A DNA stretch of 64,000 nucleotides, from positions 1-64,000 of IMG/VR virus record IMGVR_UViG_3300021959_000011. The stretch is one strand, 5' to 3'. Under the pieces are notes generated by a model. The model did no database searches. It saw only the letters and a list, made by a program, of their open reading frames with translations, and had not been told where the DNA came from. How positions within the stretch are numbered: the first letter of the stretch is position 1; each line of letters begins with the position of its first letter. Of the stretch, positions 10,716 to 47,389 are shown one piece after another. The translations under genes were made by a program, and so were the position numbers. This DNA comes from a virus.

Positions 10716-13700
10716 TTATGATGAAAGGTAGGAATTATCAACACCCCACCCGTCAGTTAATAGTAGTACACGCATTCCATTTCCATAACTTTTTGTACTC
10801 ATCATACCTTTGTAAGTTCTAGTCTTATTGGTTAGTCCACTATCACTAAATCTATCACTAGATACTAGTGTATCTTGTCCTACAGAACCACCATCACAGA
10901 ATGCAATCAAATCAATCTCTTTTCCAGTGAATAGATATCTTTGCGAACCAATTCTGTTAGGAAATTGGATAACCAACTGACCATCATCATTCAAGGATAA
11001 TTGTTCTAATGGATTGATTACAGAGTGTGAATCGGTTTCATTAAGACCTGCAAAAACATGTCTATCCCATGGTTTTAATGTATCTTTTTCTCGTACAACA
11101 AACCTACGGAATCTACCCTGTCCTTCCATATCAAATGCAGCAAGTTCCTCTGCAATAACTGGATTAACATAAAAATCCGTAACATAATTTCCTGCTCGGT
11201 CATATAATCCTTGATATGCAACAGAACTTTGTCTCTTATCGATTTCTCTATCTGTAAAGTAAATACCATAATCTGACCAAAGAACTGGTGGTTCGGATGT
11301 TTGATATATGCAATGAACTGGTTGCGTATTAGATGTGAAATCAGGCTCTCCTGTAACAGAATCGACATGTCTTTGAACAACAACCCATGCATTATCATCT
11401 GATTCTGATGATGACGCCTGATCCCTCACTGCAAATGCTATTCCATGATCTGCAATAGTTAAGAAATAACTCATAGGATATGATGGTGCGACATCCGAAA
11501 ATTGTTTTCCACTTCTTCTAAAAAATCCTTTTTGAATACGCATATTACCAGTATTATATGGTGTATCATATATTAATTCTGTACTAGAACCAGTTAAATA
11601 TTGTTCTTCGTATCGATATTCTCCATCTTCAAGTAATCCTTTTGTAACAACCACAGGAGCGGCAGTAGTACCTCTAGTTTCATATGTGATATTTTTAACA
11701 CCTGAACCACTAGTATTATTGGCGAAAATATCCGCAAGTCCAGACGTATCAACCCCTTCTACCTGATCCATTGCAATACCAACCCTACCGGCACTAATAT
11801 TAATTTCTGATTCTACTGCATCATCCAATTGGGCCCTTAGTGTATATGGGTTTATTAAATGTACATTTGATTGTACATATCCACTATATTGTGGTCTTAA
11901 TGCACCAAGAAACCCTGGCTCTCTTATTCTTGCCGGTTTAGTTACATCTACACCTTGTGTTTCGGTAACATCACCATTACTTAGTAATTGATACTTTGTT
12001 GCAATATGTAATTGTAAATATTCAAATTGTCTATCAGATACTAAACGTGGGTCTACAGAATTATTTCCTAATTCGATATGAACCTCGTTAATATATGGTG
12101 ACGCATCTTTGATTTCATACCCTCTAGAAACATTAAGTCTAATTCTCCAAGCCTGATCTCCATCAGTTCCCGATAGTGGTGAACTATTAGATGTTTCTAA
12201 TACAATTGGACCCATTGAATAATCTCTTACGTATTCAAAAGAATCGATATCTAAATTAGAAGTGTTGTACTGGAAATCCGATGCCTTAGTTAATCCCAAA
12301 TCTAAACTACCATGTGTTTGATTTGGATGTCTATATCTCTTATCATAATCAAATGATATTTCTGGACCTGTTGGTCTTTCTGTTTTCACATCCGCCGAGG
12401 TATCACTCAATATTTGTTGATAATATGAGTATGTATAATTTGATGCTGAGCTGTTACCTTGAATTGCAGGGAAAACTTCCCAACCAATATTATTAACTGG
12501 ATTTGCAAAAGTGCCCATATCTCTTGATAATGGGAACGATAACCTAATATTACCAACATTAGATACTGCTGGTTCTTTTGTTGTTTGGAAATTAAAAGTT
12601 AATGGGTCACTTGTGACTAAAGTATTCTCAGTATAAGTCACCGAAGAACCGAACTTTGCCAAATCTGGAACATCTTCTGCAAACAACCCATCGGTTAGAA
12701 CAGTTGGACCATAATGTGCGTAAGGATTAACAAATTTAATACTACCTTGTTCGGTATTTGCGTCCATAGTGCCAGTGGATGGAAATAATCCACCAGTACC
12801 AAACCTAGTCGCGTCAGTTGCAAAAGTGGTTGAAATATTTGCCGCAACGGAATTTTCTATCCATGCAAAGAAGTTTTTACGTGTGGATAGATTGCTGCTA
12901 GTTAGGTTTGCCATAGTCCACCAATCGTGGTTAAATGTAGCAAAAGTGCCAGCGGTGAATCTACCAGCGGTGACCGCAGTTTGATATGCGACAGACTTAG
13001 CATTAAATAACCCCCACCCCTTATCATCGGTGGCAGTACGTTTTTTTGATCTTCTTAAATATGCACTAGAATCTTCTGCATATTCTACGTCGATATAATT
13101 TGTACCAGTTTTTACAAACATATATTGCGAAATATATGGATCTAGTTTCATCTCATTAGCCATAGCAGTTGTTAATGCTAATGCAGTCATAGGAACCTTT
13201 GCTGTGAAAGTTATTGAAAGTTCAATTGGATCAGCAGTCCAAGGTTTTTCGGCAGATTCATCAACCAAATTGGTTAACTTAACCTCGAATGTATCGCCAG
13301 GGTCTGCACCATCAAACCCACTAATAGTATGTTTGTGTACATAACCCTCCATATAGTGGGTTTTGCCACCAACACTGACAGGAGATCTGAACTGGCTCGA
13401 TTGCCCGAAATCTTCATACCACCTCCAGCCGGCGGTGTTAAGTCCAAGTTGATCGGTATTTAAATTTCTATAATTCATTTTAAATCCAGAATTATAGGTT
13501 ACAGTACCGTGTTGGGCGATTTTAGGCTCGGTGATGCCAGAGAAACTTTGGTTTGAACCAGATGGAAATCCAACAGTTGGTGTAGCTCCATACTGTTTTA
13601 CGTAAGGAATTCTGTTTACCGTCATAGTTTGTTCGACAGAATTCTGGTTTGCATAACCTTCCATAATACCAATTCTTGATGGGTCTACACTAAGAGTCAA

Positions 13701-14756
13701 ATAACCAGATAATGGATTTGCAATTGCAGAATTAACAAAACTATTATAAACCTTTTCTAGAAAAGGTTCGACTTCATCACTATCAACCGTAACCGAATCT
13801 AGTGTTGTAATTGAAGCAGAAGTTTTTTGACTTGTACTTGTCAATGTAAACTCGTAAGTGTCTCCATACTGTAATATGCCAGGCTCAGAACTTAACCCAA
13901 TAAAACCTTCCCATTTTGCAGGTTCGGTAACATCGGCTGGGAAAAATTGTTCATCTTTGTATGTTGTAAACCAAAAATGGTGATTAATAACACCACTAGG
14001 TTCTAGTTCTTCTACATAATTTCTTAAATTTCCTTTTGAATCAATGCCACTTGCAACGTCTGGATAAGCAACGACATATCTTGCACTAGTAGTAATAAGT
14101 CTTTTAATTTTTGCAAATTCGTTTCTATAAACTCTTTCTGATATAAAACTTAATCCAAAATAACCTGTCTGTTCATCGGCCTTCTTCTTTCTAGTAGGTA
14201 CATTTGGTAATACTTTCAACCAATTACCGTCTGCATCCTGATTCTGTGGGTTTGGGTTTAAATATGCAAATAACTCGGCGTTTGGTCCTAAGAACTTATC
14301 AAAATATGTTGCATCTTCGCCAGGATACTGTGTTTTAAAAGTGGCGGATTTGGAGCCAGGCAACGATGTTGAAAGATAATCTGCCCAGTGATCGTTGCCA
14401 AATCCAGTATAAGGATCGTCTTGGATTTGTTTAATTTTTAAATCATTATTATCCATTTTCCATTCTGTAAAAGTTCCGTCATATCCTTCTGACGTAACAT
14501 TTCTTAATCCGTGAGCCCCTTCATTAATAATATTTGTATTGGAATCATAATAGTACACAATAATATTATCAATATATCTGGTTAGAGCTGCATCACTAAC
14601 TGTAATTTTTACGACTTCTGGGCCAACATCTATAAAACCATTGTCCATTAAATCTTCTGCTAATTGTGTAATTAATGGTTTATCTGGTTCTCTTCTTCGG
14701 TTCCAACGATACCCATCTAATTGAAAAATATCATTTCTTTGAATAGCTCTACTCAT
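10716..14756 (-). CDS. Large tail structural protein, member A of a four-paralogue family
   Basis: Encodes 1346 aa. The N-terminus (SRAIQRNDIFQLDGYRW) carries the QRN(D/E)I element also seen in the two largest paralogues. The C-terminal 470 residues hold the family motifs in order: a TKYQLLSNGDVT segment, FFRRSGKQFSDVAPSYPMSY, QRHVD (about residue 1129), PVHCIY, FVVREKDTLKPWDRH (about 1222), INPLEQL, GSQRYLF...EIDLIAF and YKGMMSTKSYGNGMR (about 1322). It departs from the others where they read DDYAW (here SDDNAW) and has a unique 800-residue N-terminal and central region rich in strands, including sets of aromatic-glycine turns. The family is not one I recognise. Its place among fibres points to a virion or tail component. 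It is separated from the other three copies by about 11 kb, so it is not a simple recent tandem duplicate. Confidence 0.7.
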   Translation of the reverse strand: MSRAIQRNDIFQLDGYRWNRRREPDKPLITQLAEDLMDNGFIDVGPEVVKITVSDAALTRYIDNIIVYYYDSNTNIINEGAHGLRNVTSEGYDGTFTEWKMDNNDLKIKQIQDDPYTGFGNDHWADYLSTSLPGSKSATFKTQYPGEDATYFDKFLGPNAELFAYLNPNPQNQDADGNWLKVLPNVPTRKKKADEQTGYFGLSFISERVYRNEFAKIKRLITTSARYVVAYPDVASGIDSKGNLRNYVEELEPSGVINHHFWFTTYKDEQFFPADVTEPAKWEGFIGLSSEPGILQYGDTYEFTLTSTSQKTSASITTLDSVTVDSDEVEPFLEKVYNSFVNSAIANPLSGYLTLSVDPSRIGIMEGYANQNSVEQTMTVNRIPYVKQYGATPTVGFPSGSNQSFSGITEPKIAQHGTVTYNSGFKMNYRNLNTDQLGLNTAGWRWYEDFGQSSQFRSPVSVGGKTHYMEGYVHKHTISGFDGADPGDTFEVKLTNLVDESAEKPWTADPIELSITFTAKVPMTALALTTAMANEMKLDPYISQYMFVKTGTNYIDVEYAEDSSAYLRRSKKRTATDDKGWGLFNAKSVAYQTAVTAGRFTAGTFATFNHDWWTMANLTSSNLSTRKNFFAWIENSVAANISTTFATDATRFGTGGLFPSTGTMDANTEQGSIKFVNPYAHYGPTVLTDGLFAEDVPDLAKFGSSVTYTENTLVTSDPLTFNFQTTKEPAVSNVGNIRLSFPLSRDMGTFANPVNNIGWEVFPAIQGNSSASNYTYSYYQQILSDTSADVKTERPTGPEISFDYDKRYRHPNQTHGSLDLGLTKASDFQYNTSNLDIDSFEYVRDYSMGPIVLETSNSSPLSGTDGDQAWRIRLNVSRGYEIKDASPYINEVHIELGNNSVDPRLVSDRQFEYLQLHIATKYQLLSNGDVTETQGVDVTKPARIREPGFLGALRPQYSGYVQSNVHLINPYTLRAQLDDAVESEINISAGRVGIAMDQVEGVDTSGLADIFANNTSGSGVKNITYETRGTTAAPVVVTKGLLEDGEYRYEEQYLTGSSTELIYDTPYNTGNMRIQKGFFRRSGKQFSDVAPSYPMSYFLTIADHGIAFAVRDQASSSESDDNAWVVVQRHVDSVTGEPDFTSNTQPVHCIYQTSEPPVLWSDYGIYFTDREIDKRQSSVAYQGLYDRAGNYVTDFYVNPVIAEELAAFDMEGQGRFRRFVVREKDTLKPWDRHVFAGLNETDSHSVINPLEQLSLNDDGQLVIQFPNRIGSQRYLFTGKEIDLIAFCDGGSVGQDTLVSSDRFSDSGLTNKTRTYKGMMSTKSYGNGMRVLLLTDGWGVDNSYLSS

Positions 14757-18991: not shown

Positions 18992-18999
18992 TATTTATG
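18992..18999 (-). promoter_or_regulatory. Possible late promoter, variant octamer CATAAATA
   Basis: Minus-strand CATAAATA overlapping the stop of the PAAR-CHAP gene, 16 bases upstream of the PKD fibre ATG, with AAGGAGCG between. One base off the T4 late consensus. Two further copies of the same variant precede genes in this window, which favours a real use. Confidence 0.4.
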
Positions 19000-20038
19000 T
19001 AACTTGACCACCAACCCCAGAGGACTTTGGTGCATTTACTTGTCCTACTTGCGGCGCAAGAGTTTTTCCATCTTCACAAGATACTGCACGTCGAATGGTT
19101 AACACACCTCTAGACCCACTATTTCTCTTATATGTTCTTACAGATAAAGTGTTACCCTGATTTCCACCTATCATATCAACTGTATTATTTGTATAATTTC
19201 CTGTCGCAAACCCAACATGTCCACTACCAGAACTCCTACCATTTCTAAACATTACAACTATATCGCCAGGCTGCATTTCATTCCATGGTATTTCTTTACC
19301 ATATGATTCGTAACCACGGGCCATTGCAGTTTTATGATATTTGTTACCACTTCTTTTAAGGGTTGCTCCTACAAAGACCGCACACCAAGCAGTTTCATCT
19401 GCATATTGATTTCCTTGATATCCAATTTCATCCCATAATGCAGTAATGTTTGGGTTATTGCCAGTTTCTTTCCATGCACTATTTCCCATAGATAATGCCT
19501 TTTGTGCGACCTCATAGGGGTTTCTTTGGGGCATTTCCCCACACATTCCACTAGACAATTCTTCATATTCTGGTTTCTCGCCATTTGTAGATTCTATTTG
19601 TTCTGAGTTGTTAATAGGATTTGCATTTGCAGAATCATCCACTGTTTGTATATTACTAGGATATAATGCTGGCGCATCTCTTAATTTAGGGGCAGGGAAT
19701 GGTGTAAATTCTGGAAATGTGAACTCTGGGGGGGTGAAAGATTCTCCACTATCTCCAGCAAATACATTACCACTCCCTTGGGCAATAGCAGAACCACACG
19801 CAACAGGGTCACCTATTCGCGCAACTGCCTTGCCGTTTGCATATACGGTTGCAGACCCAGCTGCAGTAGACGAACCATGTGGTGGTACATTTGGGCATCC
19901 ATGTGGTGTCCAACCATCACCTTTTCTATGGGTGGGTTTACTATTTGTTTTTACATTACCACTGCCACCATTATTCGCTCTTGGTGGGAAACATCCATGT
20001 CCTGTGCAGTTGTCATCTTTTCTAGTTACAGCTGGCAT
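18995..20038 (-). CDS. PAAR-domain spike tip fused to a CHAP/NlpC-type peptidoglycan hydrolase
   Basis: Encodes 347 aa. Residues 1-95 form a PAAR domain: conserved Cys/His residues at CTGHGC (11-16), THRKGDGWTPHGCPN (36-50) and the ATVYANGKAVARIGDPVACG strand-turn, as in the zinc-binding cone that caps contractile-tail spikes (T4 gp5.4 is the counterpart). Residues 96-165 are a Pro-rich, low-complexity linker. Residues 170-320 match a CHAP/NlpC-P60-type cysteine peptidase fold: catalytic Cys219 in ETAWCAVFVGATL, MQPGDIVVMFR, and His274 in SGHVGFATG, followed by MIGGNQGNTLSVRTY. The pairing would place a murein-cutting amidase or endopeptidase at the spike tip. Starts 17 bases inside the preceding gene, with an AGGAT ribosome site. 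Domain calls are from motifs only. Confidence 0.85.
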   Translation of the reverse strand: MPAVTRKDDNCTGHGCFPPRANNGGSGNVKTNSKPTHRKGDGWTPHGCPNVPPHGSSTAAGSATVYANGKAVARIGDPVACGSAIAQGSGNVFAGDSGESFTPPEFTFPEFTPFPAPKLRDAPALYPSNIQTVDDSANANPINNSEQIESTNGEKPEYEELSSGMCGEMPQRNPYEVAQKALSMGNSAWKETGNNPNITALWDEIGYQGNQYADETAWCAVFVGATLKRSGNKYHKTAMARGYESYGKEIPWNEMQPGDIVVMFRNGRSSGSGHVGFATGNYTNNTVDMIGGNQGNTLSVRTYKRNSGSRGVLTIRRAVSCEDGKTLAPQVGQVNAPKSSGVGGQVT

Positions 20039-25550: not shown

Positions 25551-28500
25551 CTATAGTCTTACTGTCCAATCAGAATATTCTGGTCTAATTGGTCCACCAC
25601 GTACTAGAGTGAAAATACGCATTCCATTACCATCTGACTTCGTTGATTGCATCCCTGCATATGTTCTATTTGCAGATGTTGTTGCTGTATCAGTACCTGT
25701 ATGCCATGTGTATGCTGCTCGGTAATCCAATGCATCTGATGGTTTAAGTGTAGATGTGCCGGCGGTTCCCCCACCAACACTACTATCTTGTTCTCCATCT
25801 AAATCATATTTTGGAGATGTGGCTGTACCAACATTGGTAATTCCACCTTCAGTTGATGAATCTGCACCTGAGAAACAAATTAAATCCATTTCTGAGTTTG
25901 GATATATATATCTTTGAGATGCCATTGGTGTTGGAAAATTAAACACAAAGGTTTTATCTTGAGTAATAGATAATTGTTCAACTGGATTGATAATAGCAGG
26001 ACTATCAACTTGTGGAATAACTGCAGAGACATGATAATCCCAAGGTTTTAATACATCATATTCTCTTACAACAAACCTATAAATTCCTTTTGCCTCTCTA
26101 TGCATATCTGTCCAGTGTTTTGGAAAATCTGGATCTTCTGGTACTTCTATTAAATATAAGTTTTGTGCTTCTGGGTCTTCTGCATAATTTTGTAGTTGCA
26201 TTTTCAAGACTTGACCTTCGGATAAAGATTCTCTAAGGAATACGGAATCTACTGGTAAACTATATACATATGTATTTAAACTAGTACCTTGAAATGATGC
26301 AGTATTTGCAGGCCACAATACATCACCAGTAGAATTTACTGTATATTCGTATGGATTCCTTGCATGATCTAATTCAACATTCTCGACAAATACATTCAAC
26401 CTTGCGGCATCTTCTAATTGTGCAGTTCCATCTCCTTGTCGGCCATATGGATTGATATATTTATTTAGATAACCAGCACCTTTCCATCTATATTTGACAC
26501 GTACTTTGGGGGTTGTATCTGTGCCCAATGTAGGATTAGTGTTGGTGGAGCTGATGGTGGTGTTGCGAAAGACGACCCCACCAATTTCCAAAGGATTGCC
26601 CGATGGATGAAGAAAACTCATTTTGTGCGAAACCATTTCTTGAGTTGTTAGTGTAGAACCAGTATATACTGCTGGGGTAACTGAGTCTATTTCAAATTTA
26701 TAATCAACTCCTTCAACTAATACTGCATGTACTGAATCGTTGTCAATCGTGTCAAGTAATACAACTTCTTCAATTTCTAATCCCAACATAGCTGGACCAA
26801 GTTTATCGTTATATGCTGCATCATATTGGTTTACTGTTATGTAATCGTATGAATTGACCGTTGTTATGTTCGTGGTTCTCTGCGCGGTGGCTTGATCATC
26901 TACATAACCACCACCAGAAACACTTTGCAAAGCCACTGTTTTGGTTGAAGCAGATGTACCAGTTGGAGTATTATAAATTTTCTGGGCATTTGGTCCACTA
27001 TAATTTATACCACTACCATATTCATTTGCTTGTATAGGTAAACTATCGGTTATAATAGAAATATCTATTTGGTTTCCTGGCTTCAATCTTCTGCCAGAAG
27101 CATCATATATATTTTGTAAATCTGTAGAGACTGTAGTTGTTTGAAATGGAGTTGTAGCAAAATCTAAATTCTTCTCAAAAGATGAGTAATATCCAGCATT
27201 TTGTTCTGAAGTCTCAAAAGGTCTTTTACTTGGGGAATATACACAATGCACAGGAGACTTACCATCTTCAAATTCGATTTTACCCGAAGAATTATCCACA
27301 TGTCTCTGTATAACAAACCATGCATAATCATCATCTTGATCTACAGATGCCTGATCAAACATAAATAGAGAAGTACCATGATCTGTACATGTCAATCTAT
27401 AAGTAATTGGATATGTATTATTTGTATCAGATGATGTTTTACCTTGTCTACGGAAAAATCCTGCTTTTGCCTTTGCTCCTTGTATGCCTGGCGCAAAATA
27501 AATTTCGGCCAACTCGCCCGGCAGTCTAAACACGGACTTCTTCGTACCATCTCTATCCTGCCCTCTAGTAGTATCACCATTATCTAGAAGTTGATATTTT
27601 GTACCAACGTTAACATGCACGTAATCATCTCTTTCGTCATAATAGAAACGAATTCTCCATTTTTGTGGAGAGCGTCTTTGTCTAACTGGCGATGGTAAAT
27701 TCAAATTTGTAGGTATGGCCTCTGAAACTGAATTAATATCTGATCTAGATGACAATAAGTCGGTTGCCTTTTCAGATTCTACTACTAGTAAATTACCAAC
27801 TCTACGAATTGCCTTCATAACAGCAGTATGATCTTGTTGTCCGTTTACATCAATTGAAATTGGTGTTGTTGAAGTTTCCGTTTCATATGGATAAATCAAA
27901 TTATAAGGTTGAACCTCAACTTCATCTGCCGGAATAATTAGAGACCACTCTCCTTTAGAATAAACTTTATCGCCCGCAGTAACTTGGGAAAACGGAACAT
28001 CTACAGTTGCAGTAATGGTAGTACCATCGGTAATAGATGCAATTGTTGCAATACCAGTACCAGAAACTTCTCTAATTCGTTTACCTACAAGTGTAGTAGA
28101 AGCAGACCCATCTACTAACCAACTACCTACTGGTGCATCACTAAATTCCGCAATCATAGTTGCACCAACTCCTGTTGCACCAGTTACTGTTAGTGGTGCA
28201 ACAGTTTGAGATTGATTTTCGAATGTTGATGTAAAGTTATTTTTATATGGATGTAAACATAAATCTAATGCAAGATTTCTCAAAACACCATCTTCATATT
28301 CAGTATAGTTTTCTGGATTTATAAAATATACTATTTTTATAGTTGCACCAGATGTAGGAATTTTTCCAGTATTAAACAAAATATAACCGTTTGGAGTTTG
28401 AATTACTCCACTGCCTGGATCATATGTTTGTTGGTCACTGAATAAAAAATCACCACTATCTGGATATGTATCGTCGCCGGTATAATTGTCTGCAATTAAT

Positions 28501-28700
28501 TCATTAAATTCATTTACAAAAATTCTTACTGAAGCAATATCGGCCAAACCAAGATCTGGCAATCTTTTGAGTGGTAAATGTCTAGTGACACCATCACTCA
28601 CAAAATATTCCGCATAGGTTGGTTGCATAACACTAGTAATTTCAGTTCTTTGTACTGAAAATCCAGCTGATGCGAATGGTTGCGTTAAAGTAGATGCCAT
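25551..28700 (-). CDS. Large tail structural protein, member B of a four-paralogue family
   Basis: Encodes 1049 aa. N-terminal element SVQRTEIT (residues 15-22) matches member C. Family motifs in order: PQKWRIRFYYDE (346-356), VNVGTKYQLLDNGDTTRGQDRDG, REPGEL-like RLPGELAEI (392-400), FFRRQGK (415-421), DQDDDYAWFVIQRHVD (454-469), KSPVHCVY (481-488), REYDVLKPWDYH (about 879-890), IINPVEQLSIT, ASQRYIYPNSEMDLI and YAGMQSTKSDGNGMR (near 1014-1030). Close to member C in the first 500 residues and last 180; the middle differs. The combined conservation suggests one folding unit whose two halves flank a variable insert. Ends just before a strong terminator. Virion location is inferred from context. 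Confidence 0.72.
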   Translation of the reverse strand: MASTLTQPFASAGFSVQRTEITSVMQPTYAEYFVSDGVTRHLPLKRLPDLGLADIASVRIFVNEFNELIADNYTGDDTYPDSGDFLFSDQQTYDPGSGVIQTPNGYILFNTGKIPTSGATIKIVYFINPENYTEYEDGVLRNLALDLCLHPYKNNFTSTFENQSQTVAPLTVTGATGVGATMIAEFSDAPVGSWLVDGSASTTLVGKRIREVSGTGIATIASITDGTTITATVDVPFSQVTAGDKVYSKGEWSLIIPADEVEVQPYNLIYPYETETSTTPISIDVNGQQDHTAVMKAIRRVGNLLVVESEKATDLLSSRSDINSVSEAIPTNLNLPSPVRQRRSPQKWRIRFYYDERDDYVHVNVGTKYQLLDNGDTTRGQDRDGTKKSVFRLPGELAEIYFAPGIQGAKAKAGFFRRQGKTSSDTNNTYPITYRLTCTDHGTSLFMFDQASVDQDDDYAWFVIQRHVDNSSGKIEFEDGKSPVHCVYSPSKRPFETSEQNAGYYSSFEKNLDFATTPFQTTTVSTDLQNIYDASGRRLKPGNQIDISIITDSLPIQANEYGSGINYSGPNAQKIYNTPTGTSASTKTVALQSVSGGGYVDDQATAQRTTNITTVNSYDYITVNQYDAAYNDKLGPAMLGLEIEEVVLLDTIDNDSVHAVLVEGVDYKFEIDSVTPAVYTGSTLTTQEMVSHKMSFLHPSGNPLEIGGVVFRNTTISSTNTNPTLGTDTTPKVRVKYRWKGAGYLNKYINPYGRQGDGTAQLEDAARLNVFVENVELDHARNPYEYTVNSTGDVLWPANTASFQGTSLNTYVYSLPVDSVFLRESLSEGQVLKMQLQNYAEDPEAQNLYLIEVPEDPDFPKHWTDMHREAKGIYRFVVREYDVLKPWDYHVSAVIPQVDSPAIINPVEQLSITQDKTFVFNFPTPMASQRYIYPNSEMDLICFSGADSSTEGGITNVGTATSPKYDLDGEQDSSVGGGTAGTSTLKPSDALDYRAAYTWHTGTDTATTSANRTYAGMQSTKSDGNGMRIFTLVRGGPIRPEYSDWTVRL

Positions 28701-28731
28701 CTTTTATTTACCCCATATGTTTGTTTATCTA

Positions 28732-28739
28732 TATTTATA
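28732..28739 (-). promoter_or_regulatory. T4-type late promoter octamer TATAAATA
   Basis: Exact TATAAATA on the minus strand in the 54-base gap before paralogue B, 32 bases upstream of its ATG. Confidence 0.75.
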
Positions 28740-28754
28740 ATCATCATTATAATA

Positions 28755-31700
28755 CTACGCTGGAGCGCCACCTTCATTGGTATCAGTAAATTTGATACTA
28801 CTACCGGCAGTTTGCATAAAGATCCTCATTCCATTTCCGTTTGGTAATGTACTCATCATACCTTCATATCTTCTTTTATTTTTCTTCCAGTAGTATTTCT
28901 GTCCATCTGGTCCTACATGTCCAGCGTATGGGTGTGCAGTACCAGCGGATGTTACATCAAAACCTTGTCCACCAACTGTAAACTGTGCATTCAAACCATC
29001 AGAATCTGTATATTTTTCAATTTCAATACTACCTGATTGAGTACTAAAGTCTGCAGAAGAAACTGTAATCAAATCAAGTTCACTTCTTGGATAATAAAAT
29101 CTTTGTGATGTAAGTTGAGTTGGGAATGAGAATACAAAGTCTCTATCCTGTGTAATTGACAACTGTTCTTGTGGATTAATAATTGCATTTGAATCAATTT
29201 CATGCATAGTTGCAGATACGTGGAAATCCCAAGGTTTTAATACATCCTGTTCTCTAACAACAAATCTATTAATTGTTTTTTGGAAATTTTGATTTCTCTC
29301 TGGAAAATCCCTATCTTCAGGTGTTTCGATATAATATGCGTTTCCTGCTGGGTCCGCAAATACGTAATTAATTAATTTAACAGTTAATGCTGCACTAGGT
29401 CTTGGTGCATCTCTAAACAATAATGTTTGGTTAAAGAAATCATAGATATATACATTTTTAGTTGGGTCTAATAATGACCAAATTGGATCGCCAGGCAATC
29501 TACCATTCACAGACGCACCAGTTAGATTTGTATATTTACTAATATTTAATCCAGTTGATGAATTTACAGGAGTCTTATATTTATCACCAAAGATTTCCCA
29601 CAATGCATAAATGAAGTGTATTTTATATGCCTCTTTTGTTGTTGGGTTTATAACACTACATGCCATACTCGCACCACCAGTGGGATCGGTTGGATTGTAT
29701 ACGGTCCAATCAAGGTCTACACCTTCCTTATATGTTGCAGCATTTTGTGATGTACCATCAAAAATTTCTTTAATATAATCTGGTACTGCTGCAGTAGATT
29801 CAACTGGTAGTTTAAAACTACTACCCAATTTAGTTACACCAGCGGCATCAAGTGATTGTATAAATCTATGACCTGTTGATGGATCTCCCATTCTTACCCA
29901 CTGGTCATAATTAAGAATATATGCATCTGTATCTCTAATCAATTCTTGTCCATCAATAGCAACAATCAAAGAATCTAAAACCTTCGTTTGGTTTGCTTGA
30001 TTTTCGTTGTATAGAATGTCCAACATTGCATATGAAGGGTCTGACCAATCTCCAGGCGCTGCGCCGGTTGCACCATCTGGAATACCATCGGTTGCATCAG
30101 TTGCGGCAGTTACAAAAGTAGAAACACGTTCAATTCTATTTTCTGGATAAATTACATTACCAGAAAAATGTGGAGCTAGTCTAGAATCCATAACCCAACT
30201 AGAGCCTTTGGATTTTGCAGTAGAAGATACACCATCTCTAGGCAACTCTGTAAACCCGACAATTTCTAAATCATTAACTCTCTCGTTTGAAGTTATCGTC
30301 GTAAAATCTGCTGGAAAATTGAATGCACTTGGATCAAAAGTAGCTGGATCTGTTACTTGCCACTGATAACCTTTCAACCAATAATCCGTTGTTTGAGTCA
30401 TTTTAGAACCAACGATACCAACATCTAATTCTTTTTTCTCTCCAGTACTGTCTCCAGACGCATCAGTACCTGTCAAATACCCTTTACCTGTAAAGTCTAG
30501 TGCGTTTACCGTACCATTAAACATTGTCTCTGTTGGGTCAAAATAAAGTGTTGGGCCTTCTGTTTCCAACATTTGTCCTAATGATGTATAAAGATTTGGT
30601 GTCTTTGTTAAATCATTAATATCAGATGCGGCATAGTATTGGTTTAAATCTGCAATATCTATTGGTCTTTTACATGGAGAATACACACAGTGGACAGGAG
30701 ACTTTCCAGTAAACTCTGGTTGTCCTGTTGTTTGGTCTACGTGTCTCTGTACAACAAACCACGCATAATCATCATCTTGATCTACAGATGCTTGTTCCCA
30801 CATAAAGAAACCCATACCATGGTCAGTAATAGTAATTCTATATGATAAAGGATATGTTCGTGCAGTATCGTCTATATCTTTTTGAGATCTTCTATAAAAA
30901 TCTGATTTAGACTTAATTAATTGATAAGTACTACCTCTACCAACATTAGGTTCTTTATAGATATCACACAGTTCTCCAGGCTCTCTAGATACTGGACCTT
31001 TGATACCATCTCTAGATTGTCCTTTTGTCACAGACATGTCATCAAGTAATTGGTATGAAGTTGCAACATTAACTCTTACAGATGCAAGTTTTCTATCCCA
31101 TTCAAAACGCAATCTCCATTTTTGGGGTTTACGATTTGAAGTAGGAGATGTATATTCTGGTGTCAATGTGTCATCAGACAACAAATCTACCCCTTTAGAT
31201 GATTCAACTAAAAATTTATCACTGATATCTCTTAGTGCATATTCAACATCTACTTTATTATTGGATAATGGTTTTGGATAAATCAAGTTAAATGCAGGTG
31301 CATATGTATCAACTTCTTCGTATTCAATCAAAAAGATGCTACCAGCATCAATATATGAATTTTGATCCGAAGTTGCCAGAACTTGACCACCACCGTCAGT
31401 ATTGACTGTAAATGTTTGATTTGCTGCATCCCAATTTAAATCTAATATTGCATATTGTTGTGAAGAAGTGGCGGGAATAAATACAATACCATCATTCGCA
31501 ACAAATGCATGGTTTACACCACTTATTGCAGTTTGAATTGGACCCAATCCAGCCTTTCCTACTAATGCACCATATGGAACATCTAAAGAATGTTTCCAAT
31601 GATATCCGATTGCAACATTAACATTATTGAGATCTGCTGAGTCTACCCATGTAATTTCTGAACCAGCAAGTAATGTAATAGTACTTCTTCTAGTCGCGTC

Positions 31701-32543
31701 ATCTGATTCGACTGTGTAAAAACTTTCTGGTAATAATTTTCCATTAATTGAAACTCTAAATTCTCCATCTCCCAAATCACCTCTAGTGAATGGTAACATT
31801 GCAGTACCAGATGCTGCAGTCAATACAACATTAGATGATCCAATGGTAGAGATATCCTTTTCAAAAGAAGTTCTCCATTCTCTAACAACTTTATAAAGAT
31901 GTTTAAAAGTTTTCTGTACACCCTCAATTCCTGTTGTGGTATAATCATCGTTATATTGTGTAGTTAAAGTATGTCTAAGTTTTGTAACACTTGCATCTGT
32001 ATATCCAGCCGCTACTGGATCGCCGTTAACGTCAAGAGGTGTTGCATGTGTTGCCTTTAACAATTCTGGTGTGTCATAAGGATGAACAGTCAAGTCTTTT
32101 GCAAGTTGGTATAATAAACCACCATCTGTACCTGTCCAAGAATCTTGCGCCTCTTGAAATCTAACCTCAACTGTATCACCAGATACTGGTCTATATTCTT
32201 CTGCAAAAATCAAAGAACCGAAAATTCCGGCACTTCTATCAAATTCTACAGAACCTAGGCCGGCAAGTTGTGAACCTTCTTTATATGTACCATCTTCCCA
32301 AGATGTTACATCGGGGTCTGTTGTAGTACCATCAACTGAATTTTTACCTTGTGTTCTGTCAATAGAATATCTTACTTCACCAACTTTAATTTCCCAATTC
32401 CAATCTTTATCTTCGTAATCGATTTTTGAACGTAATGGAAACACTCTTGTAGAACCGCCACCTGTATGGTATTCTACGTGTTGTCTGTGAGAGATATTAA
32501 TAATCTCATTTCTTTGAATACTATACCCACTTGAACTTGGCAT
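28755..32543 (-). CDS. Large tail structural protein, member C of a four-paralogue family
   Basis: Encodes 1262 aa, the largest of the three adjacent members. N-terminal SIQRNEIINIS (residues 8-18) aligns with member B and is followed by the VEYHTGGGSTRVFPL/AEYFVSDGVTRHLPL pair. Conserved items: PQKWRLRFEWD, ATSYQLLDDMSVTKGQSRDG, REPGELCDIY, DQDDDYAWFVVQRHVD (about residue 598), GKSPVHCVY, REQDVLKPWDFH (about 1101), INPQEQLSIT, TSQRFYYPRSELDLI and YEGMMSTLPNGNGMR (about 1228). The region of about residues 640-1080 is unique to C and includes strand-rich stretches with DATDG and ETPED turns. It may hold the receptor-binding part while the flanking conserved halves anchor it. No catalytic motif is evident. 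Neighbour spacing (55 and 66 bases) and own promoters suggest each member can be made independently. Confidence 0.72.
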   Translation of the reverse strand: MPSSSGYSIQRNEIINISHRQHVEYHTGGGSTRVFPLRSKIDYEDKDWNWEIKVGEVRYSIDRTQGKNSVDGTTTDPDVTSWEDGTYKEGSQLAGLGSVEFDRSAGIFGSLIFAEEYRPVSGDTVEVRFQEAQDSWTGTDGGLLYQLAKDLTVHPYDTPELLKATHATPLDVNGDPVAAGYTDASVTKLRHTLTTQYNDDYTTTGIEGVQKTFKHLYKVVREWRTSFEKDISTIGSSNVVLTAASGTAMLPFTRGDLGDGEFRVSINGKLLPESFYTVESDDATRRSTITLLAGSEITWVDSADLNNVNVAIGYHWKHSLDVPYGALVGKAGLGPIQTAISGVNHAFVANDGIVFIPATSSQQYAILDLNWDAANQTFTVNTDGGGQVLATSDQNSYIDAGSIFLIEYEEVDTYAPAFNLIYPKPLSNNKVDVEYALRDISDKFLVESSKGVDLLSDDTLTPEYTSPTSNRKPQKWRLRFEWDRKLASVRVNVATSYQLLDDMSVTKGQSRDGIKGPVSREPGELCDIYKEPNVGRGSTYQLIKSKSDFYRRSQKDIDDTARTYPLSYRITITDHGMGFFMWEQASVDQDDDYAWFVVQRHVDQTTGQPEFTGKSPVHCVYSPCKRPIDIADLNQYYAASDINDLTKTPNLYTSLGQMLETEGPTLYFDPTETMFNGTVNALDFTGKGYLTGTDASGDSTGEKKELDVGIVGSKMTQTTDYWLKGYQWQVTDPATFDPSAFNFPADFTTITSNERVNDLEIVGFTELPRDGVSSTAKSKGSSWVMDSRLAPHFSGNVIYPENRIERVSTFVTAATDATDGIPDGATGAAPGDWSDPSYAMLDILYNENQANQTKVLDSLIVAIDGQELIRDTDAYILNYDQWVRMGDPSTGHRFIQSLDAAGVTKLGSSFKLPVESTAAVPDYIKEIFDGTSQNAATYKEGVDLDWTVYNPTDPTGGASMACSVINPTTKEAYKIHFIYALWEIFGDKYKTPVNSSTGLNISKYTNLTGASVNGRLPGDPIWSLLDPTKNVYIYDFFNQTLLFRDAPRPSAALTVKLINYVFADPAGNAYYIETPEDRDFPERNQNFQKTINRFVVREQDVLKPWDFHVSATMHEIDSNAIINPQEQLSITQDRDFVFSFPTQLTSQRFYYPRSELDLITVSSADFSTQSGSIEIEKYTDSDGLNAQFTVGGQGFDVTSAGTAHPYAGHVGPDGQKYYWKKNKRRYEGMMSTLPNGNGMRIFMQTAGSSIKFTDTNEGGAPA

Positions 32544-32589
32544 TAATAATCTCCTTTAAAATTTTTAGGACTTTTTGTTTATCTGAATA

Positions 32590-32597
32590 TATTTATA
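32590..32597 (-). promoter_or_regulatory. T4-type late promoter octamer TATAAATA
   Basis: Exact TATAAATA on the minus strand in the 65-base gap before paralogue C, 47 bases upstream of its ATG. An AAGGAG ribosome site follows. Confidence 0.75.
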
Positions 32598-32608
32598 AAA
32601 CTTTTCTT

Positions 32609-34357
32609 CTAGTCTATGTTAACATCACTGTTGAAAATATAGTCTCCATTCACTAACATCAACACTCTCATTCCGTTTCCATTTGGTAGAGTTGATAACA
32701 TCCCCTGATATCTTCGGTTATCTGTATTTGTTCCATCTGGTTTGTATGTTTGCATAGGTACATTACTACTCTGTGCAACTACTTCTGAAGATGAGAATGC
32801 AATTAAATCAATTTCTTCTTTTGGATACATATATCTTTGAGTAGTGAGTCCTGTTGGGAAAGTGATAACAAACCTGTTATCATCTGTAATTGCAAGTTGT
32901 TCCATTGGGTTGATAATTGCATTACTATCTGTCTGGTGTCTAGTACAATCTTTGTGTACATCCCATGGTTTTACGATATCAAATTCTCTTGCAACAAATC
33001 TCCAAATATTTTTTGCCATAAATTCATCTGCGAGAGAATCTTCTCTGTCATACGGATTCAAAATATATAATGAATCTGAATTTAATTCGGATACCGAAAA
33101 TTCATTTCCAGATTCATCATACACACTACCAATAGCATTTGCTGCAGTCTGTAAATTTGCAGCCTGTTGAGTAAAGTATACACCAAAATCTCTAGGCGAA
33201 ACACTTTCCCTTGAACAAGAATACATACAATGTAATGGGAATCTAGATGATTCATCAGTTCTTGTAATACCTGTTTGATTATCTACAGTTCTTTGTGCAA
33301 GTACCCATGCATAATCATCGTTTTGGTCTGTTGAACTATCATCCATTATAAAGAAACAAAATCCACGTTCTGTGAATGTAATTCTATATTGCATAGGATA
33401 TGTACCGGCTACTGAACTATCCTGTTTGGGGAATCTTTTAAACCAACCTTTGCCGCGTCTTTTATTTCTCCAACGAGTACTTCTATTAATAGTACCACCA
33501 TCTTCAGGAATTACAATATCTTCGAAAAATAAATCAACACACTGGCCAGGATCTCGTAAGATAGAAGTAGAAACTGATGCACCATTTTCTAAAGTAATTA
33601 AACCATCACTAATACCTAATGGTGCAGTAATATCTCCGTTATCTAAAATTTGGTTTTTGGTTGCAATGTTAATTTTTAACCACGCATAAGAAGGATTTGG
33701 AATTCCTACTGTGGCCTCCCATCCCGCCGGCAAACTTGCATTTGTAACAGTACCATAGCCAGGATGTGAATTAACTAGGGTTTCTCCCCAAGTACTTACG
33801 AGAGTTTCATCAATTGCATTACCGTCACTATATGTGTCTAATCCCAAATTACGCATTTTTAAATTTAGTTGATATAACTCTGCAGAAAATTCTTTGTCAC
33901 TTTCAAATAACCTCGGACGTTCATCATATTCAAGACGCAATCTAAATTTTTGATCGATACCTCTAGAAACTTGACCTTGATTTGGTGACATTTGGTCTGT
34001 AGAATCGTATACAATTACATGTTGCAATTGTGGTTGTCCATCATCAGTAGTACCATAACTAGGTGTACCATCATATCCAGCAACAGGAAATACTGGGTCA
34101 AAAAATCTTTTTGTTACTAGGGTTGAACCATCTGCGGCGTCTACCACTTCATTACCAGATTGTGGGATTCCGTTGTATAATTGCCATTCTCGTTTTAAAT
34201 CTAAATCTAAAACTTTGAGCATTCCACCATATGGAGTACCGTCCAATCCACCATCACCAGTAAAACCACCATTACCAGTGAAGGCAGTGAACCCTGTTCT
34301 TACAGTAGAAACTCCATAGTTTTTAAATGCTGATAAGGTAACTTGTAATTGTGCCAT
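32609..34357 (-). CDS. Tail structural protein, member D (shortest) of a four-paralogue family
   Basis: Encodes 582 aa, less than half of member C. It lacks the QR(N/T)EI N-terminal element and the long insert, so it approximates the family core. Motifs: QKFRLRLEYDE (near 140), INIATKNQILDNGDIT, LRDPGQCVDLF, FKRFPKQ, TYPMQYRITFTERGF, DQNDDYAWVLAQRTVD (about 356), PLHCMYS, FVAREFDIVKPWDVH (about 461), INPMEQLAIT, TTQRYMYPKEEIDLIAF and YQGMLSTLPNGNGMR (about 559). The N-terminal 60 residues contain a Gly-rich run (GNGGFTGDGGLDG). As the minimal copy, it is the best guide to what is essential for the shared fold. It is adjacent to the PA14 adhesin and a small beta protein in transcription order. 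Confidence 0.72.
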   Translation of the reverse strand: MAQLQVTLSAFKNYGVSTVRTGFTAFTGNGGFTGDGGLDGTPYGGMLKVLDLDLKREWQLYNGIPQSGNEVVDAADGSTLVTKRFFDPVFPVAGYDGTPSYGTTDDGQPQLQHVIVYDSTDQMSPNQGQVSRGIDQKFRLRLEYDERPRLFESDKEFSAELYQLNLKMRNLGLDTYSDGNAIDETLVSTWGETLVNSHPGYGTVTNASLPAGWEATVGIPNPSYAWLKINIATKNQILDNGDITAPLGISDGLITLENGASVSTSILRDPGQCVDLFFEDIVIPEDGGTINRSTRWRNKRRGKGWFKRFPKQDSSVAGTYPMQYRITFTERGFCFFIMDDSSTDQNDDYAWVLAQRTVDNQTGITRTDESSRFPLHCMYSCSRESVSPRDFGVYFTQQAANLQTAANAIGSVYDESGNEFSVSELNSDSLYILNPYDREDSLADEFMAKNIWRFVAREFDIVKPWDVHKDCTRHQTDSNAIINPMEQLAITDDNRFVITFPTGLTTQRYMYPKEEIDLIAFSSSEVVAQSSNVPMQTYKPDGTNTDNRRYQGMLSTLPNGNGMRVLMLVNGDYIFNSDVNID

Positions 34358-34992: not shown

Positions 34993-37521
34993 TTATCCAT
35001 TAAAATATTTTGTACCAAATGAAAAATCTTCATTAGGGTCGTGCATCCATGAAAAATCAGAATTCTTTAATTGCCAATCATTACTATGGTTTGGAGATTT
35101 TACAAATACTCTCAAAACATCACTGCCGCGTCTTTCATACATGTTTGCAAATACAGGATATCTTTGTCCTGCTGTTAGATATTTAGAGTATTCCTGAGAT
35201 GCAAATCTTTTACCATGATCCCCACCATTGTCAACTTGTGCGTTTGCGCGAGTCCTAGTACTTTTAAATTTTGCATGGTCTCCTAACCAAAAATAACTAC
35301 CATCATCTGAATACGTATTAAATTTGTATGTACCAGAAACATGTGGTACAATATATCCATGATACATAGATACATAATAGTTACCAATATTTTCTGGAGT
35401 ATCCATTTGGCTTTCAATATACTTAACTGTTGCAGGTCTACCACCACGATAGTACCCATACCCACCTAATAATTTACTATCGCCCCACCAACCCCATACG
35501 TGATATCTGACAACGCCAGGTGACAGTGGTGGTAAAGTTCTTTTAGTATTTGCCAATGCATCAGCACTTGTAGAACCAGTTCTATTTAAATTCATTCCAG
35601 ACCATGCTAAAGTAAATGCATGTGGATTTGTAGATGATGTTTGTTGTTTAAATCCGGCCTTTGCAACAGTTTTAATAGGTATATTATTTGTATCTCTAAA
35701 TACGATAGTAAATATTTCTGATGAGTCATTTGCATGTTGTGGAAAGTTATATACTTTTCCTGAGTCCGCCTTTGATGCAATTTTTGTATAAACTACAAAA
35801 CCATTTTCACCACCAGAAAATGACTGTAAACTCCACCCTGCAGGCCTTGCTGAATTATATTCAGTTTCTGTACGTACAGAACTTGGATTAGAAAATCTTT
35901 GTATTGCAACTATTAAATCATTATCTTTTATTCCTGATTGTAAATTTGCACTAAATCCAACATCCTGTATACCAACTCCAACTTGGTTAAGATCATTTAT
36001 ATTTGGCCCATCAACTTCTAACGCCAACATAAATCCGTTATTATACGAACCTGTATCGTTTTGATCTAATTTCCATTTTGGTAATTTTTCACCTCGATTG
36101 TATAGAGAATATCCCCATTCAAAGTTTGTGCCCGTCAACTTACCAGATTCCAGTGGAGGTGTGATTAGGAAACTTGGAGCTGCATCGGAACTCACCCCAG
36201 CAATTAATATTACTGGATTTGGTAAAATACTGGATGCAGTAATAGTTGTCGTATTATCCACATAAACTGCACTTAAAGGAATATAATCTTTCTTTTGTTT
36301 TATTTGTATATCGGAAATACTAACAAAATTTTCTGAGTTAATAAACAATGGATATACTTTATTCCAATTATTGTTATTCTTTACATAAACTTCTCTGATT
36401 TCTTTCCATGCACCAGAATCTTTTGCATATATTTCTTTTGGAACCCACCATTTTGTCCTATCATTTCCTAATGGACTTAGTAAAGTACCTGTCGAATTGT
36501 TTGGTTTAACATCTCTTACTACATTATGACCATTTTTTGATATAACAGAAAATCTAAAAAATCTCTTATTCGCACCACGGCCAATATTATCACCAGAAAC
36601 GTATGGTCTACCATCACCTATAACTTCAACTCCCTGATACTCACCACCCTGATTAAAGTAGAAATTTGCAGTTGCATCACCATTTTTATAATGAGTTATA
36701 GTTGATGTGCCTTTGAAAAAACAAAATCCTGCTCCATCATATTTACCGCCAGAATGATGTGGTTGTACAATTTTAATATAACAGTTTCCACTTGCATTTC
36801 TCACGTTCATACTCATTAGTGCCCAAGAGTTTTGTCTAAAGTCAAAGTTTAGTGTCTGCATTACACGACCATCAGATTTTCTCACCAATGTCATGATATA
36901 TTTTTCTCTGGTCATATCTGTATATTCCAGACCATTACTATCATTACCAATGATATAATAAAATGAAAGAGTATCCATTCCAGTTGCATTAAATGTTGGG
37001 GATTGCCAAGAACGAGGATAATGTGTACCTATTTGTACATATCCTGTAATATCATTTCTGTTTGCAATGATACCATGTTTGGATGCACCACCAGTATCGC
37101 CAGAACCACTACCAAATCCACGGTTCTTTGCATCTAGTTTAAGACTCACTCTAGTCTCTGTCCAAGATAAGGGTTCGTTTGTTGCATCAATTCTTGCAAC
37201 TTCTGTCCAAGGGCCCTCTTCTGTTTCACATGCCTCTAATGATAAAATTCTATCACCTGTACCAATATTTGCAGGCCAAGTTAAATCATACGTGATATAT
37301 GGATTTTCTCCCTGTTTTCTAGGATGGTTATCATCGATAGTAAAAACAGGTGTATACATTCTATCTAAATTATTTTCACTGTAATTTTTAAGTGGCTCAT
37401 ATAATCTGGCATCGACTGCCTTCAACCCTCTACCCTTATTACCAGAGTGTTGGATTTGCAAATCTACTTTATACTCTACGTTCTGTTGATTAAGAGTATC
37501 ATCTTTGACATAGTATGCCAT
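34993..37521 (-). CDS. Tail adhesin with C-terminal PA14/GLEYA-like domain
   Basis: Encodes 842 aa. The N-terminal 60 residues (TLNQQNVEYKVDLQIQHSGN) form an attachment-like segment. Residues about 130-320 are beta-rich and include a lectin-like stretch (SFYYIIGNDSNGLEY, MTLVRKSDGRVMQTLNFDF, CYIKIVQPHHSGG). Residues 663-842 match the PA14/GLEYA jelly-roll: RYHVWGWWGDSK, VSMYHGYIVPHVSGTYKFNTYSDDGSYFWLGD and LRVFVKSP. The adjacent aspartates 739-740 in SDDGS are the DD pair that coordinates calcium in GLEYA/PA14 adhesins. These domains bind sugars in yeast flocculins and bacterial proteins. A glycan-binding role in host attachment is therefore plausible. Follows the 376-aa fibre by 12 bases. 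Confidence 0.78.
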   Translation of the reverse strand: MAYYVKDDTLNQQNVEYKVDLQIQHSGNKGRGLKAVDARLYEPLKNYSENNLDRMYTPVFTIDDNHPRKQGENPYITYDLTWPANIGTGDRILSLEACETEEGPWTEVARIDATNEPLSWTETRVSLKLDAKNRGFGSGSGDTGGASKHGIIANRNDITGYVQIGTHYPRSWQSPTFNATGMDTLSFYYIIGNDSNGLEYTDMTREKYIMTLVRKSDGRVMQTLNFDFRQNSWALMSMNVRNASGNCYIKIVQPHHSGGKYDGAGFCFFKGTSTITHYKNGDATANFYFNQGGEYQGVEVIGDGRPYVSGDNIGRGANKRFFRFSVISKNGHNVVRDVKPNNSTGTLLSPLGNDRTKWWVPKEIYAKDSGAWKEIREVYVKNNNNWNKVYPLFINSENFVSISDIQIKQKKDYIPLSAVYVDNTTTITASSILPNPVILIAGVSSDAAPSFLITPPLESGKLTGTNFEWGYSLYNRGEKLPKWKLDQNDTGSYNNGFMLALEVDGPNINDLNQVGVGIQDVGFSANLQSGIKDNDLIVAIQRFSNPSSVRTETEYNSARPAGWSLQSFSGGENGFVVYTKIASKADSGKVYNFPQHANDSSEIFTIVFRDTNNIPIKTVAKAGFKQQTSSTNPHAFTLAWSGMNLNRTGSTSADALANTKRTLPPLSPGVVRYHVWGWWGDSKLLGGYGYYRGGRPATVKYIESQMDTPENIGNYYVSMYHGYIVPHVSGTYKFNTYSDDGSYFWLGDHAKFKSTRTRANAQVDNGGDHGKRFASQEYSKYLTAGQRYPVFANMYERRGSDVLRVFVKSPNHSNDWQLKNSDFSWMHDPNEDFSFGTKYFNG

Positions 37522-45694: not shown

Positions 45695-47389
45695 TTAGAA
45701 TTCAAAGACAACTTTAATATCTTCGATTTGGTCGACAGCACGCGAAACTGGTTGTCTGTTTTCTATGTATAATACTTTTCCAGTACCAGTATCGATATCA
45801 AAAATTGTCTGTCCTGCAGTACCATAATTAGGATGTTTTGGGCCTCTATAAGAAGTACCGTATGCAAGTTTATCTGTATATTCATCAACTGGATCACTTA
45901 AAATAACAATTTGTCTGAATACTGATCTATCTCCAGTTACAGGGAATACAGATTCTGTAACATTTGTTACACCATCTTCTGATCTTGTATCTTGTTCATC
46001 ATATTCTAGTTTGAGTGCAACCATCGCATAATAACCACCCAATTCTTCAACTGCGTTAAATCCATGTCCAGTTGTAGGCGAAATGATTGGTTTTGCTTTA
46101 CATGCAGACACACTAGATGATGATACATTTCCTGCCGAGACAGTTGCGGTTGCGTTAGTGTATCCTGTACCTTTATTGGTAATCATTACTTTTTTAATTT
46201 GGTCGCCCTGAGTAATTCCATATGCAGTAAATCCTGTACCATCACCATTAATTTCAACATCTGGTGCAATAACAATACTACCAGAACCACCCTCTCCCTC
46301 TAGAAATGCATTTTCAATTGTGATTGTTGCAACATTGGTAGAAGTATTAAAATTCCAATTACTAATTTTTCTTTGTACTGGAGTAGTCGCACCAGTTTTT
46401 GTAAATACTACTGCATAACCAGTATAATCATTTGTTGCGAGTGCAGTTGCAGTTCCAGATAAGGTTACTGCAAAACTTAAAGTGCCCTCTGCAACTGTTG
46501 AATTGGATTGATTAATATTTTGATAATATCCAGAACCACCAGCATGGCCACTATTTACATTATCATCAGTAATTTTAACCCAATCAATTCCACCAGAATT
46601 TGCGATTGCATTTTGTTTAATTTGCCACTGTACATAATCAGCAGTCGCGGCATTTGGTTCTGCAGTCAAAAACTTAACAGGTACATAATCCTTTGTCAAG
46701 AATTTTAATGATGCATCTAAATCTACAGAATACATATATTTCCATGCATAACCATCACCAGTTTCAATAATTGCATTTGTTGGTGTACCAGTTGGTTTTA
46801 CTGTAGATTTACCAGGCTGCACACCAACTGCAGCATCTTTCCAACTAGTATTATTGATACATTTATAAACATTGAACTGGTTGTTGCCTTCTGTCAAGAT
46901 ATATCCATTAGGAATAATTTCTTCTACGTTGTCATGTTCATACATTGTGTATTGGGTATCAGTATTCCAATCAATTCTAGGAATTGCAAGAGAGATTGTG
47001 TCTGCAGAAACTTTCTTGAGTGCCAATAGATCAGATTTTGTTGTATTATGATATCCGACAGAATCTTCTGGAGTTGGTGGATTACTGTCATCATCCCAAG
47101 ATGAATACTTACCAATACCCATGTAAAGATTGTTGAAAAGTGACCTGTTGTAGAATGCCCAAGAGACACCCCCATCAGTTACAATACCTGACAAATGAGT
47201 TGGTGGCACTGTACCAGAAACCCCACCACCATCTGGTCCTACTGCAACATACAAATTTGAATTGTGCAAAACAACATCACCCTCATTGTAGGAATTACTT
47301 TCTTTCCACAATGGTGATTGTTCATTAATAGATTCAATGAACTGCTGTGCATTGAAAATTCTAAGTTTGTTGGTAATAATAGCAGACAT
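45695..47389 (-). CDS. gp8: Baseplate wedge protein gp8
   Basis: Encodes 564 aa, against about 334 in T4. Diagnostic elements: N-terminal ITNKLRIFNAQQFIESI, the SLFNNLYMGIGKYSSWDDDSNPP block with the PP turn, the following SVGYHNTTKSDLLALKKV, DGYAWKYMYSVDLDASLKFLTKDYVPV, and the C-terminal region with VFRQIVILSDPVDE. T4 gp8 forms a dimer in the wedge that contacts gp7 and gp10. The extra 230 residues are mostly between positions about 40-80 (WKESNSYNEGDVVLHNSNLYVAVG) and 290-400, the latter strand-rich and Gly/Ser/Thr-rich. The gene order gp25, gp6, gp7-like, gp8 matches T4 and supports the call. An exact late promoter octamer lies upstream. Confidence 0.85.
   Translation of the reverse strand: MSAIITNKLRIFNAQQFIESINEQSPLWKESNSYNEGDVVLHNSNLYVAVGPDGGGVSGTVPPTHLSGIVTDGGVSWAFYNRSLFNNLYMGIGKYSSWDDDSNPPTPEDSVGYHNTTKSDLLALKKVSADTISLAIPRIDWNTDTQYTMYEHDNVEEIIPNGYILTEGNNQFNVYKCINNTSWKDAAVGVQPGKSTVKPTGTPTNAIIETGDGYAWKYMYSVDLDASLKFLTKDYVPVKFLTAEPNAATADYVQWQIKQNAIANSGGIDWVKITDDNVNSGHAGGSGYYQNINQSNSTVAEGTLSFAVTLSGTATALATNDYTGYAVVFTKTGATTPVQRKISNWNFNTSTNVATITIENAFLEGEGGSGSIVIAPDVEINGDGTGFTAYGITQGDQIKKVMITNKGTGYTNATATVSAGNVSSSSVSACKAKPIISPTTGHGFNAVEELGGYYAMVALKLEYDEQDTRSEDGVTNVTESVFPVTGDRSVFRQIVILSDPVDEYTDKLAYGTSYRGPKHPNYGTAGQTIFDIDTGTGKVLYIENRQPVSRAVDQIEDIKVVFEF

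What the first reader, a model, noticed from the sequence alone, without database searches (positions are those of the whole stretch)
25551..34357. Three adjacent members (B, C, D) of a four-paralogue protein family I cannot match to any known one
Seen: genes of 1049, 1262 and 582 aa, plus a fourth of 1346 aa at 10.7-14.8 kb, share an ordered set of motifs: a (K)WR(I/L)R(F/L) strand, Y/NQxLxxGDxT, FxRRxxK or FKRF, QRxVD, P(V/L)HCxY, RExDxxKPWDxH, INPxEQL, xQRYxY/F...ExDLI and YxGMxSTxxxGNGMR. Two conserved halves (about 180-200 residues each) flank an insert that differs by member. D is close to the bare core. Inference: a repeated tail appendage or receptor-binding platform with exchangeable inserts.
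Basis: partly seen in the sequence, partly recalled or inferred. Interest (0 to 1): 0.75.

Follow-up and report, generated by a model that had tools for sequence, protein, structure and literature searches.

The report
Mislabelled phage tail family with inserts
Four related genes in an uncultured marine T4-like phage belong to a virion-protein family of giant phages that databases call 'tail sheath', almost certainly wrongly; here each gene keeps the same conserved core but carries large, fast-changing inserts, which fits parts of the tail's host-recognition gear.

Summary
Confirmed: four paralogous genes A, B, C and D share one ordered core at the stated coordinates. They are not unmatched: all four hit one PHROG, phrog_12249, at E 1e-34 to 1e-49. 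Its label 'tail sheath' is almost certainly wrong. Of 30 records that carry the family, 23 also encode a real sheath (PF04984) at another locus. Profile and fold comparisons with sheaths are negative. PaBG's sheaths are gp213 and gp76, while its family member, gp261, is a separate Coomassie-visible virion protein of unknown function. Bare members (320-430 aa, 1-5 copies, often in tandem) occur in jumbo myophages (PaBG, Lu11, Y3, NCTB, Atu_ph07). The window represents an uncultured marine T4-like clade (about 65 loci) with the order wedge gene, D, C, B, then A. There the core is conserved (55-72% identity), while inserts are 31-35% identical and vary greatly in length. The main insert of B and C falls where a model of the bare core has a two-residue hairpin turn. 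Best reading: a baseplate-proximal structural scaffold that displays variable domains. Its fold weakly resembles the pilus-binding arm proteins of phage JBD30. The virion role is supported by a relative; the receptor role is inferred.

The parts
32609..34357 (-). Gene D, 582 aa, shortest member, nearest to the bare core
   Evidence: phrog_12249 E 9.5e-49; profile of jumbo members aligns 15-575
33206..33742 (-). D core half 1 (residues 206-384)
   Evidence: 55% mean identity in 16 distinct orthologues
32612..33019 (-). D core half 2 (residues 447-582)
   Evidence: 72% mean identity in orthologues, length 133-143
28755..32543 (-). Gene C, 1262 aa
   Evidence: phrog_12249 E 5.9e-47
30624..31148 (-). 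C core half 1 (residues 466-640)
   Evidence: 61% identity in orthologues, length 174-176
29349..30623 (-). C insert (residues 641-1065)
   Evidence: 35% identity, 386-741 aa in orthologues
28758..29348 (-). C core half 2 (residues 1066-1262)
   Evidence: 67% identity in orthologues
25551..28700 (-). Gene B, 1049 aa
   Evidence: phrog_12249 E 2.4e-34
28236..28700 (-). B N-terminal domain (residues 1-155), shared with C residues 3-156
   Evidence: BLASTP E 8e-10
27201..27680 (-). B core half 1 (residues 341-500)
   Evidence: 62% identity in orthologues, length 159-160
26106..27200 (-). B insert (residues 501-865)
   Evidence: 31% identity, 380-640 aa in orthologues
25554..26105 (-). B core half 2 (residues 866-1049)
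   Evidence: 64% identity in orthologues
10716..14756 (-). Gene A, 1346 aa, fourth member, apart from the other three
   Evidence: phrog_12249 E 1.7e-39
12162..14606 (-). A large extra stretch (residues 51-865) between the N-terminal helix motif and the WR strand
   Evidence: profile match 15-38 at A 27-50, then core from 868; region 33% identical in orthologues, 731-1565 aa
10719..12161 (-). A core (residues 866-1346)
45695..47389 (-). Baseplate wedge gene (phrog_438), conserved upstream neighbour in the clade
   Evidence: same order in relatives

Best explanation
A, B, C and D are virion structural proteins of the distal tail. Each has the same mostly beta-strand core, which is the whole protein in jumbo phages. 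Shown: homology, presence of one relative in the PaBG virion, conserved gene order with the baseplate wedge gene, conserved core with variable inserts. Inferred: paralogous cores pack together as a hetero-oligomer into a baseplate-attached arm or fibre root; loops of the core (above all a hairpin turn between P(V/L)HCxY and RFVxRExD) and the N-terminal side carry extra domains that point outwards and touch the host surface or hold other adhesins. They are not tail sheath.
For: One PHROG for all four. PaBG_00261 from its second Met is 34,777.7 Da, equal to the 34,778.16 Da of Coomassie-visible band 10 of purified PaBG (PMC7412058). Clusters with baseplate and tail-fibre genes. Conserved order wedge, D, C, B, A in marine relatives. 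Core 55-72% identical against 31-35% and large length variation for the inserts. Domains in single orthologues: RCC1 propeller, T7-tail-fibre N-domain PF03906 E 1.2e-6, wedge-shared domain of phrog_438 in several B orthologues. Model of Lu11 gp247 (pLDDT 91) puts the main insert at a two-residue turn. Weak fold link to JBD30 arm proteins: D to 8rk3_G, prob 0.90, E 0.019; Lu11 gp247 to FoX4 gp30, a gp48 homologue, E 3e-4; JBD30 gp47/gp48 form pilus-binding arms (PMC11445458).
Against: No sequence-profile similarity to JBD30 gp47/gp48. JBD30 is not among the 50 PDB matches listed for the better model and the D model is mediocre (pLDDT 67). No receptor, oligomer or location in the virion has been shown for any member. 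Variable inserts could serve contacts inside the virion.
Confidence: 0.6

Rival explanations
1. A purely structural baseplate component (an extra wedge or collar ring) whose inserts bind other baseplate proteins, not the host.
For: Order beside T4-type wedge genes; several B orthologues share a small domain with the wedge protein; the bare core in jumbo phages has no insert at all.
Against: Inserts diverge much faster than the core and vary in length by hundreds of residues, unusual for parts bound inside a conserved machine; a propeller occurs in one member.
Confidence: 0.25
2. Whisker or decoration proteins on head or tail. Several jumbo carriers are discussed as 'hairy Myoviridae', and repeated copies would suit a repeated appendage.
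For: 'Hairy Myoviridae' group (PMC6143709) and whiskers on Atu_ph07 (PMC6102473) overlap with the carriers; 1-5 copies per genome.
Against: Gene position is in baseplate/tail-fibre clusters; whiskers are not documented here for the marine T4-like carriers.
Confidence: 0.1
3. Tail sheath, as PHROGs and RefSeq label the family.
For: Only the label.
Against: A separate PF04984 sheath in 23 of 30 family-bearing records, never overlapping; Y3 and NCTB sheaths are phrog_23; no profile or fold relation; PaBG and Atu_ph07 authors name other genes as sheath.
Confidence: 0.03

Closest known systems
phrog_12249: PaBG_00261, Lu11 gp246/gp247, Y3 gp151/gp152, NCTB tandem copies, Atu_ph07 gp321/gp323
   Same: Homologous over the core; multiple copies; near tail and baseplate genes; PaBG member found in the virion
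   Different: Jumbo members are bare cores of 320-430 aa; the window members carry inserts of up to several hundred residues in a T4-like phage
JBD30 gp47/gp48 (phrog_687), lateral pilus-binding arms of a siphophage baseplate
   Same: Paired paralogous genes among tail genes, similar size of bare core, weak fold match; some gp47 homologues also carry about 200 extra residues
   Different: No sequence-profile relation; fold match borderline
Phage tail sheath (PF04984, phrog_23)
   Same: Only the database label
   Different: Sequence, fold matches and gene differ; the real sheath is a separate gene in the same genomes
T7 tail-fibre N-terminal domain (PF03906)
   Same: A domain of this type in one B orthologue
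   Different: Only a part of the N-terminal region, below or near cut-off elsewhere; not the core

Membership tests
phrog_12249 | Significant match to the family profile | tested here: met
   All four members, E 1.7e-39 to 9.5e-49; all 29 orthologues scanned
phrog_12249 | Virion protein | tested here: inconclusive
   Shown for the homologue PaBG_00261 only (with PMC7412058); no data for the window phage
Phage tail sheath | Match to a sheath profile (PF04984 or phrog_23) | tested here: not met
   No such match for the family; sheath lies elsewhere in 23 of 30 records
Phage tail sheath | Sheath fold | tested here: not met
   No sheath among fold matches in the PDB; hhalign negative
JBD30 gp47/gp48 arm proteins (phrog_687) | Sequence-profile homology | tested here: not met
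   hhalign probability 0.8 and 0.2 percent
JBD30 gp47/gp48 arm proteins (phrog_687) | Same fold | tested here: inconclusive
   D to 8rk3_G prob 0.90 E 0.019; Lu11 to FoX4 gp30 E 3e-4, TM 0.44-0.48; not in listed PDB matches of the better model
JBD30 gp47/gp48 arm proteins (phrog_687) | Heterodimers forming a lateral arm that binds a receptor | not testable with these tools
   Needs cryo-EM or multimer prediction

The most novel reading that the evidence does not exclude
The family is a new class of modular adhesion scaffold: a beta core, without a confident match among solved structures, that accepts whole domains in one hairpin turn, whose paralogues assemble into a mixed appendage, shared between jumbo phages and an uncultured marine T4-like clade that carries it beside its T4-type baseplate genes.
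Probability: 0.35. Interest if true: 0.65.

Novelty: new variant of a known kind. Interest (0 to 1): 0.45.

Why it matters
It corrects a spreading annotation error ('tail sheath' in PHROGs and RefSeq) for a family found in at least 68 sequenced phage records. It gives the family a high-confidence predicted fold and points to likely host-recognition modules in an uncultured marine T4-like clade. It makes a testable claim: where the inserts sit, and that they, not the core, should set host specificity.

Tried and rejected
Pfam, NCBIfam and PDB sequence searches with the window members gave nothing useful (weak sub-threshold hits such as EHN, CUB and MspA treated as chance). The tail-sheath label was rejected. 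Homology to JBD30 gp47/gp48 by profile was negative (the compare tool itself failed). Three consecutive BFVD matches A7KUT2-A7KUT4 (267-293 aa) may belong to Bacillus phage 0305phi8-36, known for curly fibres, but that record is not in the collection, so this is unverified and not used. Homology of window wedge and tail proteins to family members: none by phmmer. The sheath of the window's own virus could not be found; the record is partial. The GLEYA/PA14 neighbour was sought as a fixed partner and found in none of six relatives, although that search had no positive control.

Full report
Observation. The four ORFs and their lengths are exactly as reported. Pairwise BLASTP among A, B, C and D gives best E-values from 3e-60 to 5e-25, and most of the quoted motifs occur in each protein in the same order. 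B and C are closest and also share their N-terminal ~155 residues (E 8e-10). The virus record (140,926 bases, partial) holds four members and no more.

What family. All four match one PHROG, phrog_12249, at E 1.7e-39 (A), 2.4e-34 (B), 5.9e-47 (C) and 9.5e-49 (D). No Pfam, NCBIfam or PDB sequence match of note exists. TBLASTN finds relatives in 65 to 68 sequenced phage records, mostly jumbo myophages: PaBG, Lu11, HRDY3, NCTB, Yoloswag, Alexandra, Y3, Dickeya JA and AD1 phages, fHe-Yen9-02, Atu_ph07 and Phosso. In them the protein is a bare core of about 320-430 aa in 1-5 copies per locus, often in tandem.

The label is wrong. PHROGs and several RefSeq records call the family 'tail sheath'. PaBG's sheaths are gp213 and gp76; the family member is PaBG_00261, listed in the same table as 'Unknown' (PMC7412058). 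Atu_ph07's authors name gp132 and gp140 as sheath, while the family members are gp321 and gp323 (PMC6102473). Y3 and NCTB carry a genuine sheath of phrog_23 within about 10 kb. A search of 30 family-bearing records with PF04984 found a separate sheath in 23, including three long records of the window's own marine clade, never overlapping the family. The seven without a match include several short or partial records, but also one of 424 kb. Profile comparison with sheaths and the fold searches show no relation. The window's own record has no detectable sheath, most likely because it is partial.

A relative is a virion protein. The predicted mass of PaBG_00261 from its second Met, 34,777.7 Da, equals the 34,778.16 Da listed for Coomassie-visible band 10 of purified PaBG (with PMC7412058). 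This is shown for that homologue only.

The window's clade. By gp6 the phage is T4-like, nearest to Methylophilales phage Melnitz and Pelagibacter phage HTVC008M at 36-37% identity; those phages gave no match to D, C or A. A scan of IMG/VR with the window's own motif version found 65 loci. They keep the order wedge gene, D, C, B, with A further on. Some have an additional D-like copy, one of 2481 aa with an RCC1 beta-propeller at residues 559-779 and the core at the C-terminus.

Anatomy. In orthologues half 1 and half 2 are 55-72% identical and mostly constant in length (half 1 of D is the exception, 158-420 aa). The insert between them is 31% (B) and 35% (C) identical and 380-741 aa long; the region between N-terminal domain and core is 35-39% identical and 179-562 aa long; the shared N-terminal domain is 34-46% identical. 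The Lu11 gp247 model (pLDDT 91, pTM 0.92) places the insert at a two-residue turn between two adjacent strands (PVFCVYGANGKINRFVVRE). In D and A the same site holds about 60 extra residues. In A the big extra stretch sits elsewhere, between the helix motif LAEDLMDNGF and the WR strand. Near the N-terminus one B orthologue has a T7 tail-fibre-type domain (PF03906, E 1.2e-6) and several have a small domain shared with the baseplate wedge protein (phrog_438, E 8e-9 to 3e-5).

Mechanism. The best-supported reading is a baseplate-proximal scaffold of the host-recognition apparatus: conserved cores pack with each other and with the baseplate, variable inserts and N-terminal domains project. Packing and projection are inferred. 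The fold evidence points the same way but is weak: D's best PDB match is a 305-residue chain of the JBD30 baseplate, by length most likely gp47 or gp48, which form lateral arms as heterodimers and bind the type IV pilus (PMC11445458). Lu11 gp247 matches FoX4 gp30, a gp48 homologue. There is no profile-level homology, and JBD30 was not among the listed PDB matches of the better model. I therefore claim 'works like' at moderate strength and do not claim membership.

Novelty. The family was already clustered in PHROGs, so it is not new as a family. New here are the correction of its label, the inserted form in a marine T4-like clade, the mapped insertion site and a confident model of the bare core.

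Noticed in passing
54767-56272 and 56301-57137: Two adjacent genes both match the hub/tail-lysozyme family phrog_430; the first also has endolysin-like matches, the second lacks them.
   Followed up: no
18995-20038: A PAAR-type spike domain fused to a lysozyme/endolysin-like domain, separate from the hub genes.
   Followed up: no
34993-37521: 842-aa protein with a GLEYA/PA14 lectin-like domain next to D; not found in six relatives.
   Followed up: partly
7674-10250; L006:2498-4819; L007:10232-11938: Three proteins of this virus carry a stretch matching phrog_677, the baseplate wedge to tail-fibre connector.
   Followed up: no
L096:10445-17890: A 2481-aa extra member of the family with an RCC1 beta-propeller.
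   Followed up: partly
L065:1461-2990, L066:861-2495, L067:921-2504, L069:957-2486, L070:1030-2493: Homologues of JBD30 gp47 in other siphophages are about 170-230 aa longer than gp47, with the extra part absent from JBD30.
   Followed up: partly
BFVD A7KUT2, A7KUT3, A7KUT4: Three consecutive accessions of 267-293 aa share the family's predicted fold (E 1e-4 to 5e-4); possibly Bacillus phage 0305phi8-36, identity not verified.
   Followed up: partly
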